Positions 4,120 to 36,937 of a stretch of 43,686 nt of DNA are shown here, piece by piece (position 1 is the stretch's first letter; every line of letters starts with the position of its first letter). The translations under genes and the position numbers were made by a program. The stretch lies in the IMG/VR virus record IMGVR_UViG_3300045973_001055, positions 1-43,686 of that record; one strand, given 5' to 3'. The notes under the pieces were generated by a model that did no database searches, was not told where the DNA came from, and saw only the letters and a list, made by a program, of their open reading frames with translations. The stretch is from a virus.

Positions 4120-4931
4120 TGTGGAATCTACAAGTACTATTTACTATAGAACAGCCTAATATGAGTATTCACGTCACTGGTTTATCTGCTTATCCTAATG
4201 GAGTTACTTTCAGTGGTGTAGGACATTGGCCAGACCAATTTAATCCTATATTAGAACCAGAAGAAAATTTACCCAGAACCATACACATACACACTACCTA
4301 TAATGCACTTGAAGAAACAGAATATGTTAGCAATACTTCTTTTTTCATGCTTGGATTAGAAACTAATATTATTGATGATACTCATCAAGATGTCATATTA
4401 ACTAGAGATGGAATTGATATTGGCATAATGGCTTCTATGACTATGCGAATAAAAAATAAACCCTATGTTTATATTAGTAAGAATTTTGATACAATTTATG
4501 GTACTATGGAATTTTTTAATTTAAGTACTATATTAGATCAACTCAATGTGACAGGAAATTATGTCGCTTCACTAGACGATTATGGAGTTAAATTGATTTG
4601 CACCGATCCTTATGTTCAAGCTAATCCATCTTCTTTAACTATTGAATATATTGGAAGTGCTATAATTGTAAATAGTAGTGGTTTAACTTGCACATGGTTA
4701 GGATGGTATTATAATTCTGAAGAAATTGCAGCAAATATTATTACAGTACCAGTAGAAGAGTATTTACAACCTTGGGCAAAAATTGCTTATATGGGTCAAA
4801 TTATGAGTGCAATACAAGTCACTGGAATTGATACTTATGATGATAAAATAGTTAAAATTGTAAATGGAACAGAACAAAATAAATATTTAGAAGGATATAC
4901 AATACTTAGGGTAGATAGATATGATTGGTAA
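4119..4931 (+). CDS. Putative tail/structural protein of unknown function
   Basis: A 270-residue protein whose ATG overlaps the stop codon of the large tail gene (TAATG), so the two are almost surely translated together. I recognise no domain. The sequence is rich in Thr, Ile, Tyr and Asn and reads as mostly beta-strand, without a signal peptide, membrane segment or cysteine motif, which suits a virion protein. It is the last plus-strand gene and is followed at once by a strong terminator. Being next to the tail-tip gene suggests a baseplate or tail-fibre accessory role, but that is inference from position only. Confidence 0.6.
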   Translation: MWNLQVLFTIEQPNMSIHVTGLSAYPNGVTFSGVGHWPDQFNPILEPEENLPRTIHIHTTYNALEETEYVSNTSFFMLGLETNIIDDTHQDVILTRDGIDIGIMASMTMRIKNKPYVYISKNFDTIYGTMEFFNLSTILDQLNVTGNYVASLDDYGVKLICTDPYVQANPSSLTIEYIGSAIIVNSSGLTCTWLGWYYNSEEIAANIITVPVEEYLQPWAKIAYMGQIMSAIQVTGIDTYDDKIVKIVNGTEQNKYLEGYTILRVDRYDW

Positions 4932-4975: not shown

Positions 4976-5365
4976 CTATTCGGTAATAAATGCCATTGCT
5001 TGCAATACTAACTGTGAATCAATTGGTCTAGTAGCCGATTCTAAATCTTCTATATTAATTGGAGTGCAAAGAATATCAATTTCAACATTGAATAATTCTT
5101 TAATATCCTCATAAAATGCTTTTTCTTTGTCATGATTTTCAAATTTAACTTGCTGATTTTCATCAACAATTAATTCACCTTCAGCATCTAACACAGCATG
5201 TTTCATTAGTAAAGTTTGTTTGTTTTCAATAATTTCTTCATATATTGGTGCTAAAGTTTTGATTAACCTACTTATTCCAAAAGTTGCTTTTGGTCTTAAA
5301 CCTGCGGACAACATTTGTCCAATTGCATGGTAACCATTAAAAATATCATTATTTGTTACTCTCAT
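4976..5365 (-). CDS. Small phage protein, DUF1617-like
   Basis: A 129-residue protein with the site AAAGGAGATAAAT before its ATG. The general pattern (short N-terminal lead, a lysine-rich helix with IKTLAPIYEEIIE, then a phrase of the type LDAEGELIVDENQQ and a C-terminal region around LCTPINIEDLE) resembles DUF1617 proteins of Gram-positive phages, which have no known function. The match is from memory of the pattern, not a search. It is the last gene of the long polymerase and nucleotide-metabolism unit, just before the convergent terminator. Confidence 0.5.
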   Translation of the reverse strand: MRVTNNDIFNGYHAIGQMLSAGLRPKATFGISRLIKTLAPIYEEIIENKQTLLMKHAVLDAEGELIVDENQQVKFENHDKEKAFYEDIKELFNVEIDILCTPINIEDLESATRPIDSQLVLQAMAFITE

Positions 5366-25271: not shown

Positions 25272-25366
25272 TGTTTGTGTTCCTCCAAATTTTGTGTTTC
25301 AAATTTTTATTTTGTTACAAAAGAAACCAGAATATCGGGCGAAATTCTTAATTTCTTTTATAATTT

Positions 25367-25395
25367 ATTATAACATAATTTTCTCATTGTGTCAA
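25367..25395 (-). promoter_or_regulatory. Consensus sigma-A promoter for the winged-helix/SSB unit
   Basis: On the minus strand: TTGACA (25395-25390), 17 bases, TATAAT (25372-25367), extended -10 TGT. Both boxes are perfect. Start would be near 25360, leaving a leader of about 90 bases before the winged-helix ATG, which has GGAGG 10 bases upstream. Confidence 0.92.
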
Positions 25396-25481
25396 ATAAA
25401 AGAGAGTAATTTTTTAGTAGATTTTCCATAATTAATGTAATTTTCTAAGATTTATCCACTAACTTATTACTCCCCGCGACA

Positions 25482-27851
25482 TTACAGAGATTTAGTTAGT
25501 TTTGATATGCTTGACGCGCCATTAATGGCTTTATTTCCTATGGTAGTTCTACCACTAATTGGTATATCATTTACGCTAATTTTAATGATATTAGTTGAAG
25601 TTGCAACTAATACTTCTTTAGTTTTTTGATTTATAAATGTAGCATCAACTATATATTCAGTAGCATCTTTAAGTTTGTGTATATTAACACCTTTGCCGCC
25701 ACGTCCTATATTAGAAAATTCTTTCATATCAGTTTGTTTAACCATTCCATTAGAAGTAATAGAACATAAATATATATTTTCTTCCAAAGGTATATTTACT
25801 ATTGCGACAAGATGATCATTTGGATTTAAGTTGATTCCTTTAACTCCCATGGTATTTCTACCAGTAGACGTTATTTCAGATTCTTTAAACTTAATCCCAT
25901 TGCCATTGGCGCTAATAAGCATGATTTCTTCTTTTTCTTTTATGAATTGAACAACTGCTAAACTATCGCCATCTTTTAATTTAATGGCTGCCATACCAGT
26001 CCTTTTTTTAGAAATATATTCGGATAATTCAGTCTTTTTTACAATACCATTAATAGTGCCAAAGACAACATATTTACTTGTTGTATTTTTATTGTATGGA
26101 ATCATATTAACTATTTTCTCATCAGCTTCCATTTCTAAAATAGAATTTAAGTGTGTTTCCTTACCAATTTCTAAATCATTTAAATAATATATATATGCTT
26201 TACCTTTATTTGAGAAAAGTAAAACCATATCTCCATTGCTAGTATAAATAGTTTCTTTAATAAAATCATTATTTTTCAATTTTATTTTAGAACCTTTACC
26301 ACCTCTATTTTGTACTAAATAATTAGTAGCTTCGGTAGCAAGTATAGCTCCTTTTTCAGAAATATAAACTACTAGATTTTTCTTTTCTAATGGTTCATTT
26401 TCTTCTTCAGTATTAATTGTTGTATTTAAAGTTCTATGGTCATCTTTAAATTTATTTTTAATGCTTTCTATTTCTCTTATTACTTCTTTATTAAATTTTT
26501 CTTCACTATTCAATAATTCTGTAATTTGAATAGACTCTAACTCTAGCTCCTTTAGTTCTTTTACCAATTTCTCTTTTTCAAGTGCGGCTAATTTTTGTAA
26601 TTTCATATCCAAAATCGCTTTTGCTTGAAGTTCAGTAAATGAATAGTTCTTCATTATTGTTACACAAGCAACTGCAGTATTCGCTGAAGCTTTAATGTCT
26701 CTAATAACATCATCAATAATATCTATCGCTTTAATTAATCCAGTTAAAATATGAATTCTATCAAGTATTTTTCGTAAGTCAAATTCATAACTTCTTCTAA
26801 TTGTATTTTTTAAATGCTTGAGATATGTAACTAATGCTTCGCGCCATCCAAATACTCTTGGGAATCTACCTTCTTCAAGCATTACCATATTTACTGGATA
26901 ATGATACCCTAATGAAGTTTCTTTATAAAGCCTATCAATAATGCGCGCAACATTAGCTGTTTTAGTTAATCTAATTCTAATAGCAACACCATTATAGTCG
27001 GTACCATCAAAATAACTTTCTATTCCACTAATTTTACCTTCTGCAATAGACTTGTTCAATTGTTCGCAAATTGTACTTGTACAAACTTGATATGGCAATT
27101 CTTTTACCACAATTTCATTTTTGTCACTATCATATTCCATTTTTGCAATAATTTTTATACTTTTTCCTTTACCTTCTCTTAAAGAAAGTTTTACTTCTTC
27201 CTCATTAGTAATTATTCCTCCAGTAGCAAAATCAACTGGACAATAAATATCTTCAAAAGTTGATTGTGGATTGTTGACTAATTTAACTAGAGCAGCGCAA
27301 ACATCCCCAATATTAAATTGAGGGATGGAGCATGAGGCGCCAACGCCGATACCAGTACACCCATTGACAATATTAGGGAAATAACCTGGAAGCACAGTAG
27401 GAAAATAATCTGTTTGATCATAATTTTCTCTCCATTTCTCGATGGTTTCTTTTTTAATATTTTTCAACATTTCAGCCGCAACAGCAGAAGAACGTAATTC
27501 TAAATACCTATCTGCGGCATAATCATCCAAATTAATTAAAGAACCAACATTCCCTTGAAAATCTTCCAAAGGATAACGTAAAGCAAATGGCTGTGCCATC
27601 CTCACTAAATTGCCATATATTGGACCTGAACCATGCACACTAAATGACATGGCAGCGGCCACATTTTTTGTTCCTTTTTTAAAAGCCTTGTCATGAGTAA
27701 TACCATTAATCTGCTGAGCATAAAGTATCTTTCTCGCGCCGTCTTTTAAACAATCTCTTGAATCTGGAATTGCTCGATATTTCAATACATAACCAGCATA
27801 GGTTAAATATTCTTTTGCGAGTATATCCTCTATTCTTTTATCTTCAATCAT
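25482..27851 (-). CDS. Type IIA topoisomerase subunit A (GyrA/ParC-like)
   Basis: A 789-residue homologue of GyrA/ParC. The breakage-reunion domain shows YAGYVLKYRAIPDSRDCLKDGARK near the N-terminus and the active site AADRYLELR (catalytic Tyr116). A coiled-coil and TOWER part follows, then from about residue 490 a beta-pinwheel C-terminal domain with repeated motifs (NRGGKGSKIKL, GMAAIKL, GRGGKGVNIHKL). With the GyrB-like protein it would form an A2B2 enzyme that passes DNA through double-strand breaks. The sequence alone does not tell gyrase from topoisomerase IV. It has its own promoter, separate from gyrB. Confidence 0.92.
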   Translation of the reverse strand: MIEDKRIEDILAKEYLTYAGYVLKYRAIPDSRDCLKDGARKILYAQQINGITHDKAFKKGTKNVAAAMSFSVHGSGPIYGNLVRMAQPFALRYPLEDFQGNVGSLINLDDYAADRYLELRSSAVAAEMLKNIKKETIEKWRENYDQTDYFPTVLPGYFPNIVNGCTGIGVGASCSIPQFNIGDVCAALVKLVNNPQSTFEDIYCPVDFATGGIITNEEEVKLSLREGKGKSIKIIAKMEYDSDKNEIVVKELPYQVCTSTICEQLNKSIAEGKISGIESYFDGTDYNGVAIRIRLTKTANVARIIDRLYKETSLGYHYPVNMVMLEEGRFPRVFGWREALVTYLKHLKNTIRRSYEFDLRKILDRIHILTGLIKAIDIIDDVIRDIKASANTAVACVTIMKNYSFTELQAKAILDMKLQKLAALEKEKLVKELKELELESIQITELLNSEEKFNKEVIREIESIKNKFKDDHRTLNTTINTEEENEPLEKKNLVVYISEKGAILATEATNYLVQNRGGKGSKIKLKNNDFIKETIYTSNGDMVLLFSNKGKAYIYYLNDLEIGKETHLNSILEMEADEKIVNMIPYNKNTTSKYVVFGTINGIVKKTELSEYISKKRTGMAAIKLKDGDSLAVVQFIKEKEEIMLISANGNGIKFKESEITSTGRNTMGVKGINLNPNDHLVAIVNIPLEENIYLCSITSNGMVKQTDMKEFSNIGRGGKGVNIHKLKDATEYIVDATFINQKTKEVLVATSTNIIKISVNDIPISGRTTIGNKAINGASSISKLTKSL

Positions 27852-33264: not shown

Positions 33265-33293
33265 ATTATAACATAAAAATGGCAATTTGTCAA
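33265..33293 (-). promoter_or_regulatory. Sigma-A promoter for the ligase unit
   Basis: On the minus strand: TTGACA (33293-33288), 17 bases, TATAAT (33270-33265), extended -10 TGT. The -35 follows directly on the TAA stop of the small membrane protein gene. Confidence 0.9.
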
Positions 33294-33568: not shown

Positions 33569-33826
33569 TTAACTTCTTTCTTTGAAAAATTTTCCTTTTA
33601 TTGCCGCGAGAAAGATAATGATATCTTCTTTCACAGTTTTCTTAGGTACATCTAATCCCATTTGAGCAGCGCATTCATCACATAAAACAATATTAAAATT
33701 TTGCTTATCATCAGGATTTTTCTTTAAAACACAATCTAACTCTACCCAATTAGTAAAATCTATATGAGTAGTAATTTTTTCTTTTTTACAATTCTCACAT
33801 TGTAATGTTAAATTTACTTGTTGCAT
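33569..33826 (-). CDS. Small zinc-ribbon-like protein
   Basis: An 85-residue protein with two cysteine pairs, CENCKKE (Cys10, Cys13) and LCDECAAQMG, spaced by about 36 residues as in a zinc ribbon or treble clef. No known partner. The start has AGGAGATTAAGTA and overlaps the kinase stop by one base. Confidence 0.6.
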   Translation of the reverse strand: MQQVNLTLQCENCKKEKITTHIDFTNWVELDCVLKKNPDDKQNFNIVLCDECAAQMGLDVPKKTVKEDIIIFLAAIKGKFFKERS

Positions 33827-34320
33827 TACTTAATCTCCTCCATAAATACAGCAGCCTTAGTTTCTAATTCTCCAAGAGTTCCACTATTATCTATAACTAC
33901 ATCATAGTCATACAATTCAACATTTGCATCTGAATCATTAGATATTATAGGTTCAACTCTACTATTCTTTACTAATAATGTTATAGCACCAAAATCATTT
34001 GCAAATCTTGAAATTTCTTCAGGTTCTCTACTATGAATAAATAGGATTCCATCTCCATCCCAACTTTCAAAATTATTAATAACGTCTTTGATGTACCTAT
34101 AAGGACCATCATTATACCTAACCCACAATGCTTTTAAATCACTAAGCATTCTTCTATCTTTTTCAGTCTTCCCGCCATTCCAATCAAACACATTGGCAGC
34201 TACTTCTTTAACCTCGTCAACTGTTGACACATTGAACACTTTTCCAAATAATTCACAACACTCTACAAAGGTATCTTTTCCACTACCGCCAACACCATTA
34301 ATTACTACAATTTGTTTCAT
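33826..34320 (-). CDS. P-loop kinase, deoxynucleoside monophosphate kinase-like
   Basis: A 164-residue protein starting MKQIVVINGVGGSGKDTFVE, with the P-loop GVGGSGKD. The GSGKDT form, small size and LFIHSREPEEISRF late strand are those of phage dNMP kinases and related nucleotide kinases. These make dNDPs from dNMPs, for example after host DNA breakdown. It follows the CYTH gene and fits the dNTP theme. The exact base is not readable; a function in another small-molecule phosphorylation is possible. Confidence 0.65.
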   Translation of the reverse strand: MKQIVVINGVGGSGKDTFVECCELFGKVFNVSTVDEVKEVAANVFDWNGGKTEKDRRMLSDLKALWVRYNDGPYRYIKDVINNFESWDGDGILFIHSREPEEISRFANDFGAITLLVKNSRVEPIISNDSDANVELYDYDVVIDNSGTLGELETKAAVFMEEIK

Positions 34321-34806
34321 TCAAACACCTCCATTTAGTGCTATATTTTTATTTTTGTACTTTTCATCATAAGTAACTTCAACACCAAAATACTCTGGCG
34401 GAACAAACCACAATGCTTTTTCTTCCGTATCAAATTCTATTTCAATTACCTTTAATGGAAAATTTATATAATCATCAACTTCATATATAAGTCCAGTATT
34501 ATCATCGACATAAGTATATCTCATCTTCTCTAATTGTATACCTACTGCTCTATCAATATTGTTTTCAAATTCAAGTTTAGTTATTTTCCATTCTTTTTCT
34601 TGTCTTACAAGTCCATAACCACTTTTAAATGTTATTCTATATGAATCCCATCCCTCTCCACGGATACTTCTTCTAAATCTAATTTCTGGTAGTATACTTA
34701 AATAGTATTGTGTTATGCGTGTTGTACGAATTAATGTACAATTAAAGTGTTTCATTGTATCAATATTGAATTCGTTATTAATTAAAAATTTTCGTTCTAT
34801 TTCCAT
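34321..34806 (-). CDS. CYTH-domain triphosphate tunnel enzyme
   Basis: A 161-residue CYTH protein. The defining EIERKFL (ExExK) is at residues 2-8. Further expected charged pieces are PEIRFRRS, YRITFKSG, YEVDDY (ExD), VIEIEFD (ExE) and EVTYDEKYKN. These line the tunnel that holds a triphosphate with metal. Family members hydrolyse inorganic triphosphate, thiamine triphosphate or RNA 5' triphosphate, and some are adenylate cyclases. Which applies is open. It is the first protein gene after the structured RNA, with GAGGTAAATT before ATG and no other promoter seen between, so it may be read from the RNA's promoter. Confidence 0.8.
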   Translation of the reverse strand: MEIERKFLINNEFNIDTMKHFNCTLIRTTRITQYYLSILPEIRFRRSIRGEGWDSYRITFKSGYGLVRQEKEWKITKLEFENNIDRAVGIQLEKMRYTYVDDNTGLIYEVDDYINFPLKVIEIEFDTEEKALWFVPPEYFGVEVTYDEKYKNKNIALNGGV

Positions 34807-34834
34807 AATTTACCTCTATAATATTTATAATATA

Positions 34835-35108
34835 CTCTTTAAAAAAGATTAGAAGAATCCCATATATGGCTATCGCCTTTGCCCTTAAGACAAATATGGA
34901 GTTGCTCGTCAGCCCTACAACTCAGCTTTTACGACCCTGGACACTTGCTCCTTTCTTTTACCATCACATTTTTACCCATAAGCAAGGTAAGATACTAGCT
35001 GTGATACACTAGATGACGCTTTCGGTAGCGAGTGATATCTATGCATTGGCTCACTAAACCCAATAGTTTAATGTCTTATTGCGCGGACAAACCATATTTA
35101 ATTCTTTT
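34835..35108 (-). ncRNA. Candidate structured RNA (or long structured leader) of unknown class
   Basis: A gene-free stretch transcribed from a strong promoter just to its right. By hand count 34861-35100 is about 42% GC, against about 30% around it, and no reading frame fits. Helices read by eye: outer AUAUGG-UUUGUCC (35097-35085) with GGGCAAA (34884-34878) and CCAUAU (34869-34864); hairpin UAAAC/GUUUA (35070-35066, 35059-35055) whose loop AUUGG can pair CCAAU (35049-35045) as an H-type pseudoknot; GAUAUCACU/AGUGUAUC (35039-35031, 35010-35003) with inner CGCU/AGCG; CUUGCU/AGCAAG (34986-34981, 34949-34944); GAGUUG/CAACUC (34923-34918, 34904-34899). It does not match tmRNA, RNase P, SRP, 6S, or the cobalamin or lysine riboswitches as I know them. 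No strong terminator follows (only a weak GATT-N5-AATC then TTTTTT, about 34839-34856), so it may lead into the CYTH gene. Confidence 0.65.
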
Positions 35109-35114
35109 TCTTTT

Positions 35115-35143
35115 ATTATAACATTAAAATCCCAAAAAGTCAA
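35115..35143 (-). promoter_or_regulatory. Sigma-A promoter for the structured RNA / CYTH unit
   Basis: On the minus strand: TTGACT (35143-35138), 17 bases, TATAAT (35120-35115), extended -10 TGT. The -35 box encodes Phe-Asp near the end of the upstream 97-residue gene, and that gene's TAA stop lies in the spacer. Start is expected near 35108. Confidence 0.9.
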
Positions 35144-35417
35144 ACTTTTTAGTTGCATCACTTGCCATCTTTGCTTTCCAATATCTTTTAAATTGTTCAT
35201 CAACATTCCCTAATTTAAAACCAGTACCATCTTTCAATACAATTTTTGATTCTAAATCTGTTTGTTGAGGATAATTAAATTCAATCCTTGTTCCATCTTT
35301 ATATATTTTTGAATTATAAATATAACCTACTAATTTCCAATGCGTTGGTTTTTCCACTGCTGGATCTTCCAAAGAAGCTAGGAACCAATTTGTTATAATT
35401 CCATCTATTTCTAACAT
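35124..35417 (-). CDS. Small hypothetical protein
   Basis: A 97-residue protein with ribosome site AGGAGAATATTT. It seems beta-rich, with a pattern LVGYIYNSKIYKDGTRIEF and VLKDGTGFKLGNVD, seen in short phage proteins of unknown role. No domain name can be given. Its last codons carry the promoter of the next unit. Overlaps the gene upstream by seven bases. Confidence 0.6.
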   Translation of the reverse strand: MLEIDGIITNWFLASLEDPAVEKPTHWKLVGYIYNSKIYKDGTRIEFNYPQQTDLESKIVLKDGTGFKLGNVDEQFKRYWKAKMASDATKKFDFLGF

Positions 35418-36908: not shown

Positions 36909-36937
36909 ATTATACCATATATTCCGCCAAAAGTCAA
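36909..36937 (-). promoter_or_regulatory. Sigma-A promoter for the vWA / RNase H unit
   Basis: On the minus strand: TTGACT (36937-36932), 17 bases, TATAAT (36914-36909), extended -10 TGG. It comes right after the terminator of the lysis unit. The leader is about 68 bases. Confidence 0.9.

What the first reader, a model, noticed from the sequence alone, without database searches (positions are those of the whole stretch)
34835..35108. Unknown structured RNA with its own strong promoter
This 270-base stretch has no gene, is GC-rich (about 42% by hand count) in an AT-rich genome, and folds into several helices, one with a possible pseudoknot. The 5' end AAAUAUGG (35099-35092) can pair either with CCAUAUUU (34899-34892) or, as AUAUGG-UUUGUCC, with the more distal GGGCAAA/CCAUAU; the two choices exclude each other, which is what a switch would look like. 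It does not match the common RNA classes I know. It may be a free RNA or the leader of the CYTH-kinase-zinc-membrane protein operon.
Basis: partly seen in the sequence, partly recalled or inferred. Interest (0 to 1): 0.85.

Follow-up and report, generated by a model that had tools for sequence, protein, structure and literature searches.

The report
Orphan structured RNA in a phage
A phage genome fragment has one long gene-free stretch with its own strong promoter, and the two ends of its RNA can pair with each other, so it is probably a structured regulatory RNA of no known class; however, no relative of it could be found, so neither the structure nor the function is proven.

Summary
The raw observation holds. 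The stretch 34807-35123 is the only long gap with raised G+C in a window that is about 95% coding (34853-35098 is 41.9% G+C, other gaps 19-35%). A TTGACt-17-TATAAT promoter (extended -10) on the minus strand starts an RNA near 35108. No Rfam family, tRNA or protein matches it.
The structure claim is only partly supported. Total folding energy is no better than in shuffled sequence (z -0.3). But the first 40 nt pair with the last ~45 nt (P0, P1, P3) far better than chance: 0 of 1000 shuffles, and 7 of 3000 random starts allowed their best partner. Two candidate H-type pseudoknots are above chance (p about 0.01-0.04).
No homologue was found in phage and plasmid collections, about 50 records of related phages or about 790 bacterial genomes, so covariation cannot be tested. 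No terminator was detected behind it and no good promoter before the CYTH gene, so I favour a structured 5' leader of the CYTH-dNMP kinase operon; a free RNA is the main rival.

The parts
35115..35143 (-). sigma-A type promoter TTGACT-17-TATAAT with extended -10 (TG); expected start of RNA near 35108
   Evidence: sequence
34843..35108 (-). the candidate RNA element (about 255-265 nt)
35100..35106 (-). P0, 5' strand AAGAAUU
   Evidence: pairs with 34853-34859, probability 0.78-0.99
34853..34859 (-). P0, 3' strand GAUUCUU
35091..35097 (-). P1, 5' strand AUAUGGU
   Evidence: pairs with 34864-34870, probability 0.88-0.99
34864..34870 (-). P1, 3' strand GCCAUAU
35085..35091 (-). The model prefers 35086-35090 with 34873-34877
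   Evidence: P2 probability 0.0; alternative in the minimum-energy fold
35072..35078 (-). P3, 5' strand UAAGACA
   Evidence: I11; probability 0.36-0.57
34886..34892 (-). P3, 3' strand UGUCUUA; competes with local hairpin UUGUC:GGCAA
35026..35065 (-). candidate H-type pseudoknot A: UAUUGG/CCAAUG with loop UAGUGAG/CUCGCUA
   Evidence: best score; 4% of shuffles reach it
34899..34927 (-). candidate H-type pseudoknot B: AGC/GCU with GAGUUGU/GCAACUC
34892..34899 (-). CCAUAUUU, the proposed switch segment; can also pair with AUAUGG at 34861-34866 and, 8 of 9, with the CYTH start-codon region 34802-34810
   Evidence: (I1, I3, I6)
34842..34847 (-). run of U after the element; no terminator-like hairpin passes the scan here
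   Evidence: sequence
34321..34806 (-). CYTH-domain protein, first gene downstream
   Evidence: PF01928, E 1.5e-4, just under cut-off; phrog_6660, 7.5e-27
33826..34320 (-). deoxynucleoside monophosphate kinase-like protein, second gene downstream
   Evidence: phrog_139, 2.6e-15
35124..35417 (-). 97-aa orphan protein upstream; the -35 box of the RNA promoter lies in its 3' end
   Evidence: no hits

Best explanation
The stretch encodes a structured RNA of about 255-265 nt, on the minus strand, whose 5' end (at the promoter's expected start, about 35108) folds back on its 3' end (about 34853) through a long imperfect helix and encloses a core that may hold two pseudoknots. Shown by computation on one sequence: promoter, lack of coding, G+C rise, end-to-end helix better than chance. 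Inferred: that it is made, that it folds so, and what it does. Most likely it acts in cis, as a structured 5' leader of the CYTH - dNMP kinase - zinc protein - membrane protein operon: no terminator-like hairpin follows it, no good promoter lies between it and CYTH, and the 3' strand of the closing helix lies about 47 nt before the CYTH start codon, where opening or closing of the helix could change read-through, stability or access to the start codon. The signal it would respond to is unknown; processing into a separate stable RNA is compatible with this.
For: Only long, G+C-raised gap in the window. Promoter 35143-35115. 5' arm against 3' arm: -26.9 kcal/mol against -11.8 +- 2.8 in shuffles, 0/1000; 0/1174 places of the same geometry in the window; with the best partner allowed, 7 of 3000 random starts reach it, and none of four other strong promoters does (-9.6 to -13.9). 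Pseudoknot score sum -34.5 against -18.7 +- 6.0, 1.3% of shuffles. No terminator-like site at 34840-34870 although convincing ones are found elsewhere (36977-36956, 37754-37736), and none of the listed promoters lies on the minus strand between 34843 and 34806 (29 weaker ones were not shown).
Against: Overall folding energy equals shuffled sequence, and the interior (61-200) folds slightly worse than shuffles. No homologue anywhere, hence no covariation. The arms were picked after looking at the sequence. G+C-rich foreign DNA without function would also look unlike its surroundings. Upstream genes may read through into CYTH, so the operon need not depend on this promoter.
Confidence: 0.42

Rival explanations
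1. A free-standing trans-acting phage non-coding RNA (as GOLLD, ROOL or raiA RNAs are), made from its own promoter, closed end to end, and ending near 34840 at the U-run by weak termination or by processing; CYTH is then read from upstream or by read-through.
For: RNA ends that pair with each other beginning 2 nt after the expected start are typical of stand-alone RNAs; strong promoter; U-run at 34847-34842; candidate pseudoknots.
Against: No terminator-like hairpin before the U-run in the scan; the only hairpin there, GGAUU-CUUCU-AAUCU, is weak. No separate promoter for CYTH listed. Not conserved in related phages.
Confidence: 0.3
2. Not a functional RNA: a short insert or relic of foreign DNA with higher G+C between two genes, in which the arms pair by chance or are imperfect inverted repeats of a small dead mobile element; the promoter simply serves the CYTH operon.
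For: Whole-element fold not better than shuffles; no homologue; strong promoters are common in this window.
Against: Arm pairing beats 2993 of 3000 random starts even with a free choice of partner and starts at the expected RNA start; no second copy in the record; no protein remnant; no clear target-site duplication (the 7-nt AATCCCA pair does not flank the arms).
Confidence: 0.23
3. A very divergent member of a known RNA class (group I intron, RNase P, tmRNA, 6S, raiA, a large riboswitch).
For: Closing helix plus pseudoknots is also the plan of several of these; group I introns are common in related phages.
Against: cmscan of 34700-35250 with permissive filters lists only two chance matches at E up to 10 (rli28 E 3.6, K10_TLS E 0.47); no tmRNA or tRNA; raiA model alone finds nothing; it lies between genes and does not split one, unlike an intron.
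Confidence: 0.05

Closest known systems
GOLLD and ROOL RNAs (phage-borne ornate RNAs; PMC12286853)
   Same: Phage or prophage non-coding RNA, complex predicted structure with pseudoknots, function unknown
   Different: They are about 600-800+ nt, often near tRNA islands, and no Rfam model finds anything here; no tRNA in the window
raiA motif RNA / ModT (RF03072; PMC11706538)
   Same: About 200 nt, sigma-A promoter, pseudoknots, once thought to be a cis leader
   Different: Model RF03072 has no match in this record even at E 10
Large riboswitch-type leaders found by the GC-rich intergenic approach (DIMPL, PMC8723152)
   Same: Long, G+C-rich gap upstream of an operon, with a closing helix
   Different: No homologues, no ligand, no clear expression platform; class not in Rfam
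SPbeta-like phages (Spbetavirus SPBc2; Geobacillus virus E3)
   Same: Same replication module: Pol III alpha 41%, RecJ-like protein 39-41% identical
   Different: No credible sequence or model match to the RNA in the related records searched whole, Geobacillus virus E3 and 47 IMG/VR phages among them

Membership tests
Any Rfam 15 family (4227 models) | match at or above gathering score, either strand | tested here: not met
   whole window: 0; 34700-35250, E up to 10: only chance matches
tRNA / tmRNA | ARAGORN match | tested here: not met
raiA motif RNA (RF03072) | covariance-model match | tested here: not met
GOLLD / ROOL | covariance-model match; neighbouring tRNA island | tested here: not met
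Group I intron | RF00028 match and a gene split by the element | tested here: not met
   the element lies between two complete reading frames
Riboswitch (as a mechanism) | conserved aptamer domain in homologues | tested here: inconclusive
   no homologue found
Riboswitch (as a mechanism) | two mutually exclusive folds of similar energy linked to an expression platform | tested here: inconclusive
   proposed AAAUAUGG:CCAUAUUU state about 5 kcal/mol above the minimum; P3 against a local hairpin is balanced; no terminator; start-codon pairing state 1.6 kcal/mol above the minimum of the 339-nt leader
Riboswitch (as a mechanism) | ligand binding and regulation of the downstream gene | not testable with these tools
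   needs in-line probing and reporter assays
Structured RNA in general | folding energy below that of shuffled sequence | tested here: not met
   z -0.30
Structured RNA in general | compensatory base changes in homologues | not testable with these tools
   no homologue found, so no alignment to test
Structured RNA in general | closing helix joining 5' and 3' ends, better than chance | tested here: met

The most novel reading that the evidence does not exclude
A new class of pseudoknotted, end-closed RNA of about 255 nt carried by a lineage of large SPbeta-like phages, strongly expressed in infection, acting in trans or as a nucleotide-sensing leader of a CYTH triphosphatase - dNMP kinase operon.
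Probability: 0.25. Interest if true: 0.65.

Novelty: new member of a known kind. Interest (0 to 1): 0.38.

Why it matters
Structured RNAs of phages are rarely found and mostly of unknown function (GOLLD, ROOL). A compact one with its own promoter next to nucleotide-metabolism genes would be easy to test. As it stands it is one sequence without relatives, so it is a good candidate and not a discovery.

Tried and rejected
Homologue searches that gave nothing: blastn in phages (one 30-nt chance hit in the A+T-rich part) and plasmids; scans for CYTH, ParE and RNR relatives in IMG/VR; 80 IMG/VR and 8 genome loci with related RecJ and whole records behind them by blastn and by a one-sequence covariance model; 7 bacterial genomes holding related prophage genes; 391 + 395 genomes of two Bacillota classes, where the weak matches lie in what looks like coding DNA or cover only a short piece; exact-pattern scans of IMG/VR with three 17-18 nt pieces (the two hits are near-identical coding DNA of another phage). 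The best blastn hit in a related phage (G045, 20 nt, E 0.003) is a ribosome-binding site before a gene. Hits to L010 and L011 were bacterial chromosome pieces labelled as phages. The neighbourhood of the VWA gene in other phages is not shared. Considered and dropped: protein remnant; internal start GTG with SD AAAGGAG (spacing of 3 too short, product 9 aa); tmRNA-like reading because of helix plus pseudoknots (no tRNA-like part); retron or DRT RNA (no reverse transcriptase recognised among the genes near it); type III antitoxin RNA (no tandem repeats).

Full report
WHAT THE WINDOW IS. The window is one whole IMG/VR virus record of 43,686 bases. Its replication genes are most like those of SPbeta-type phages: DNA polymerase III alpha 41% identical to SPbeta YorL and the RecJ-like protein 40-41% identical to YorK, with a phage-type topoisomerase pair, ATP-dependent DNA ligase, RNase H, PhoH and dUTPase around them. 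The best relatives in IMG/VR share RecJ at only 44% identity, so the phage has no near relative in what I could search.

THE OBSERVATION. On both strands 34807-35123 holds no credible gene. It is the only long gap with raised G+C in a window that is 95% coding. G+C is 41.9% in 34853-35098 against 30.7% +- 4.4 for all 246-nt windows; only 1.3% of windows reach it and all other gaps of 50 nt or more have 19-35%. Searching long G+C-rich gaps has revealed several new structured RNA classes in bacteria (PMC8723152). On the minus strand TTGACT-17-TATAAT with a TG before the -10 box lies at 35143-35115, so RNA should start near 35108. This promoter is one of several as good or better in the window (33293, 31829, 36937), so it is not special in itself.

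STRUCTURE. The minimum free energy of 34835-35108 (-64.3 kcal/mol) is not better than that of shuffled sequences (-62.8 +- 5.0, z -0.30), nor is any sub-window clearly better. The claim 'folds into several helices' thus carries no weight alone. But the two ends pair unusually well. Nucleotides 1-40 and 213-262 of the RNA hybridise with -26.9 kcal/mol; shuffles give -11.8 +- 2.8 and 0 of 1000 reach it; no other sampled place in the window with the same geometry does (0 of 1174). As the arms were chosen after looking, I repeated the test with the 5' arm fixed by position and the best 3' partner 150-260 nt downstream allowed: 7 of 3000 random starts reach -26.9, and four other strong promoters give -9.6 to -13.9. 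The helix begins 2 nt after the expected RNA start. It consists of P0 (35106-35100 / 34859-34853), P1 (35097-35091 / 34870-34864), a short middle part and P3 (35078-35072 / 34892-34886); P0 and P1 have pairing probabilities of 0.78-0.99. A simple search for H-type pseudoknots finds UAUUGG/CCAAUG with UAGUGAG/CUCGCUA (35065-35026) and AGC/GCU with GAGUUGU/GCAACUC (34927-34899); the summed score is reached by 1.3% of shuffles, the best single one by 4%. This is modest support, from a scoring scheme of my own.

THE PROPOSED SWITCH. In a nested energy model the AAAUAUGG:CCAUAUUU state is 4.9 kcal/mol above the minimum and has probability 0.0; the real competition is between P3 (about 0.5) and a local hairpin UUGUC:GGCAA (about 0.4). 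CCAUAUUU could also pair with the start-codon region of CYTH, 8 of 9 bases (I3), and that state is only 1.6 kcal/mol above the minimum of the 339-nt leader. Such short A+T-rich matches are common; I treat this as a lead.

KNOWN CLASSES. Rfam 15 gives no match in the window and only chance matches at E up to 10 for 34700-35250. ARAGORN finds no tRNA or tmRNA. The raiA model finds nothing. GOLLD and ROOL, the best known phage-borne ornate RNAs (PMC12286853), are much longer, lie near tRNAs and do not match.

HOMOLOGUES. None was found: not by blastn in 50,697 phage and 72,556 plasmid records; not in 47 related IMG/VR records and three related phage records by blastn, nor in the same IMG/VR records and two of those phages by a covariance model built from the single sequence, nor in further loci, seven bacterial or archaeal genome bins with related phage genes, or 786 genomes of two Bacillota classes; the weak hits read residue by residue are chance. 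Three exact 17-18 nt pieces scanned over all of IMG/VR give only coding DNA of an unrelated phage. The single-sequence model would miss distant relatives. Close relatives in unsearched metagenomes are not excluded.

LEADER OR FREE RNA. The terminator scan finds good intrinsic terminators elsewhere (36977-36956, 37754-37736) but none at 34840-34870, and none of the promoters it lists lies on the minus strand between 34843 and the CYTH start at 34806. Transcription from 35108 should therefore run into CYTH (34806-34321), the dNMP kinase-like gene (34320-33826) and two small genes, up to the next perfect promoter at 33293. The leader would be about 300 nt; the three other strong minus-strand promoters before genes have leaders of roughly 25-70 nt (from coordinates). 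I therefore put a structured cis leader first (0.42), a free RNA second (0.30), and no function third (0.23). The three can be told apart by one 5'/3' end map.

VERDICT. A good candidate for a new structured RNA, resting on composition, a promoter and one helix that beats chance; a single sequence without relatives.

Noticed in passing
window 33293-33265, 31829-31801, 36937-36909 (- strand): Three further near-perfect or perfect sigma-A promoters in gaps of the minus-strand gene block; the phage seems to use host-type promoters for many short transcription units.
   Followed up: partly
window 36977-36956 and 37754-37736 (- strand): Two convincing intrinsic terminators; the first is directly followed by the promoter at 36937.
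   Followed up: no
window 25272-25481: A second gap of 210 nt, A+T-rich (25% G+C), between the small 24999-25271 gene and the reading frame 25482-27851, a topoisomerase subunit by its homologues.
   Followed up: no
L121 (G045:36000-55400) and L132 (G010:1-20000): Related phages with 25 and 29 tRNA genes in 20 kb, among them a tRNA with anticodon CTA in L132 and one with TCA in L121; reading frames are short under table 11, so these phages may read a stop codon as an amino acid.
   Followed up: partly
L045:14019-14357, L076:14023-14351, L109:3800-4134, L110:1456-1778: Group I introns in SPbeta-like phages. L035 about 5031-5266 and L106 about 4144-4394 look by eye like further ones that stay under the Rfam score.
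   Followed up: partly
L141:12570-12961 (G032:72570-72961): A G+C-rich non-coding stretch beside a long reading frame in a related phage, no Rfam match; looks like an unrecognised insert or intron.
   Followed up: no
L010 (MT835476.1) and L011 (OR844989.1): Records in the phage collection that look like bacterial chromosome (adjacent gyrase-type subunits, seryl-tRNA synthetase next to an amino-acid exporter), so they are probably mislabelled.
   Followed up: partly
window 34952-34970 and 35107-35125: The -10/start region of the promoter (minus strand AATGTTATAATAAAAGAAA) recurs inside the RNA as AATGTGATGGTAAAAGAAA, 84% over 19 nt.
   Followed up: no
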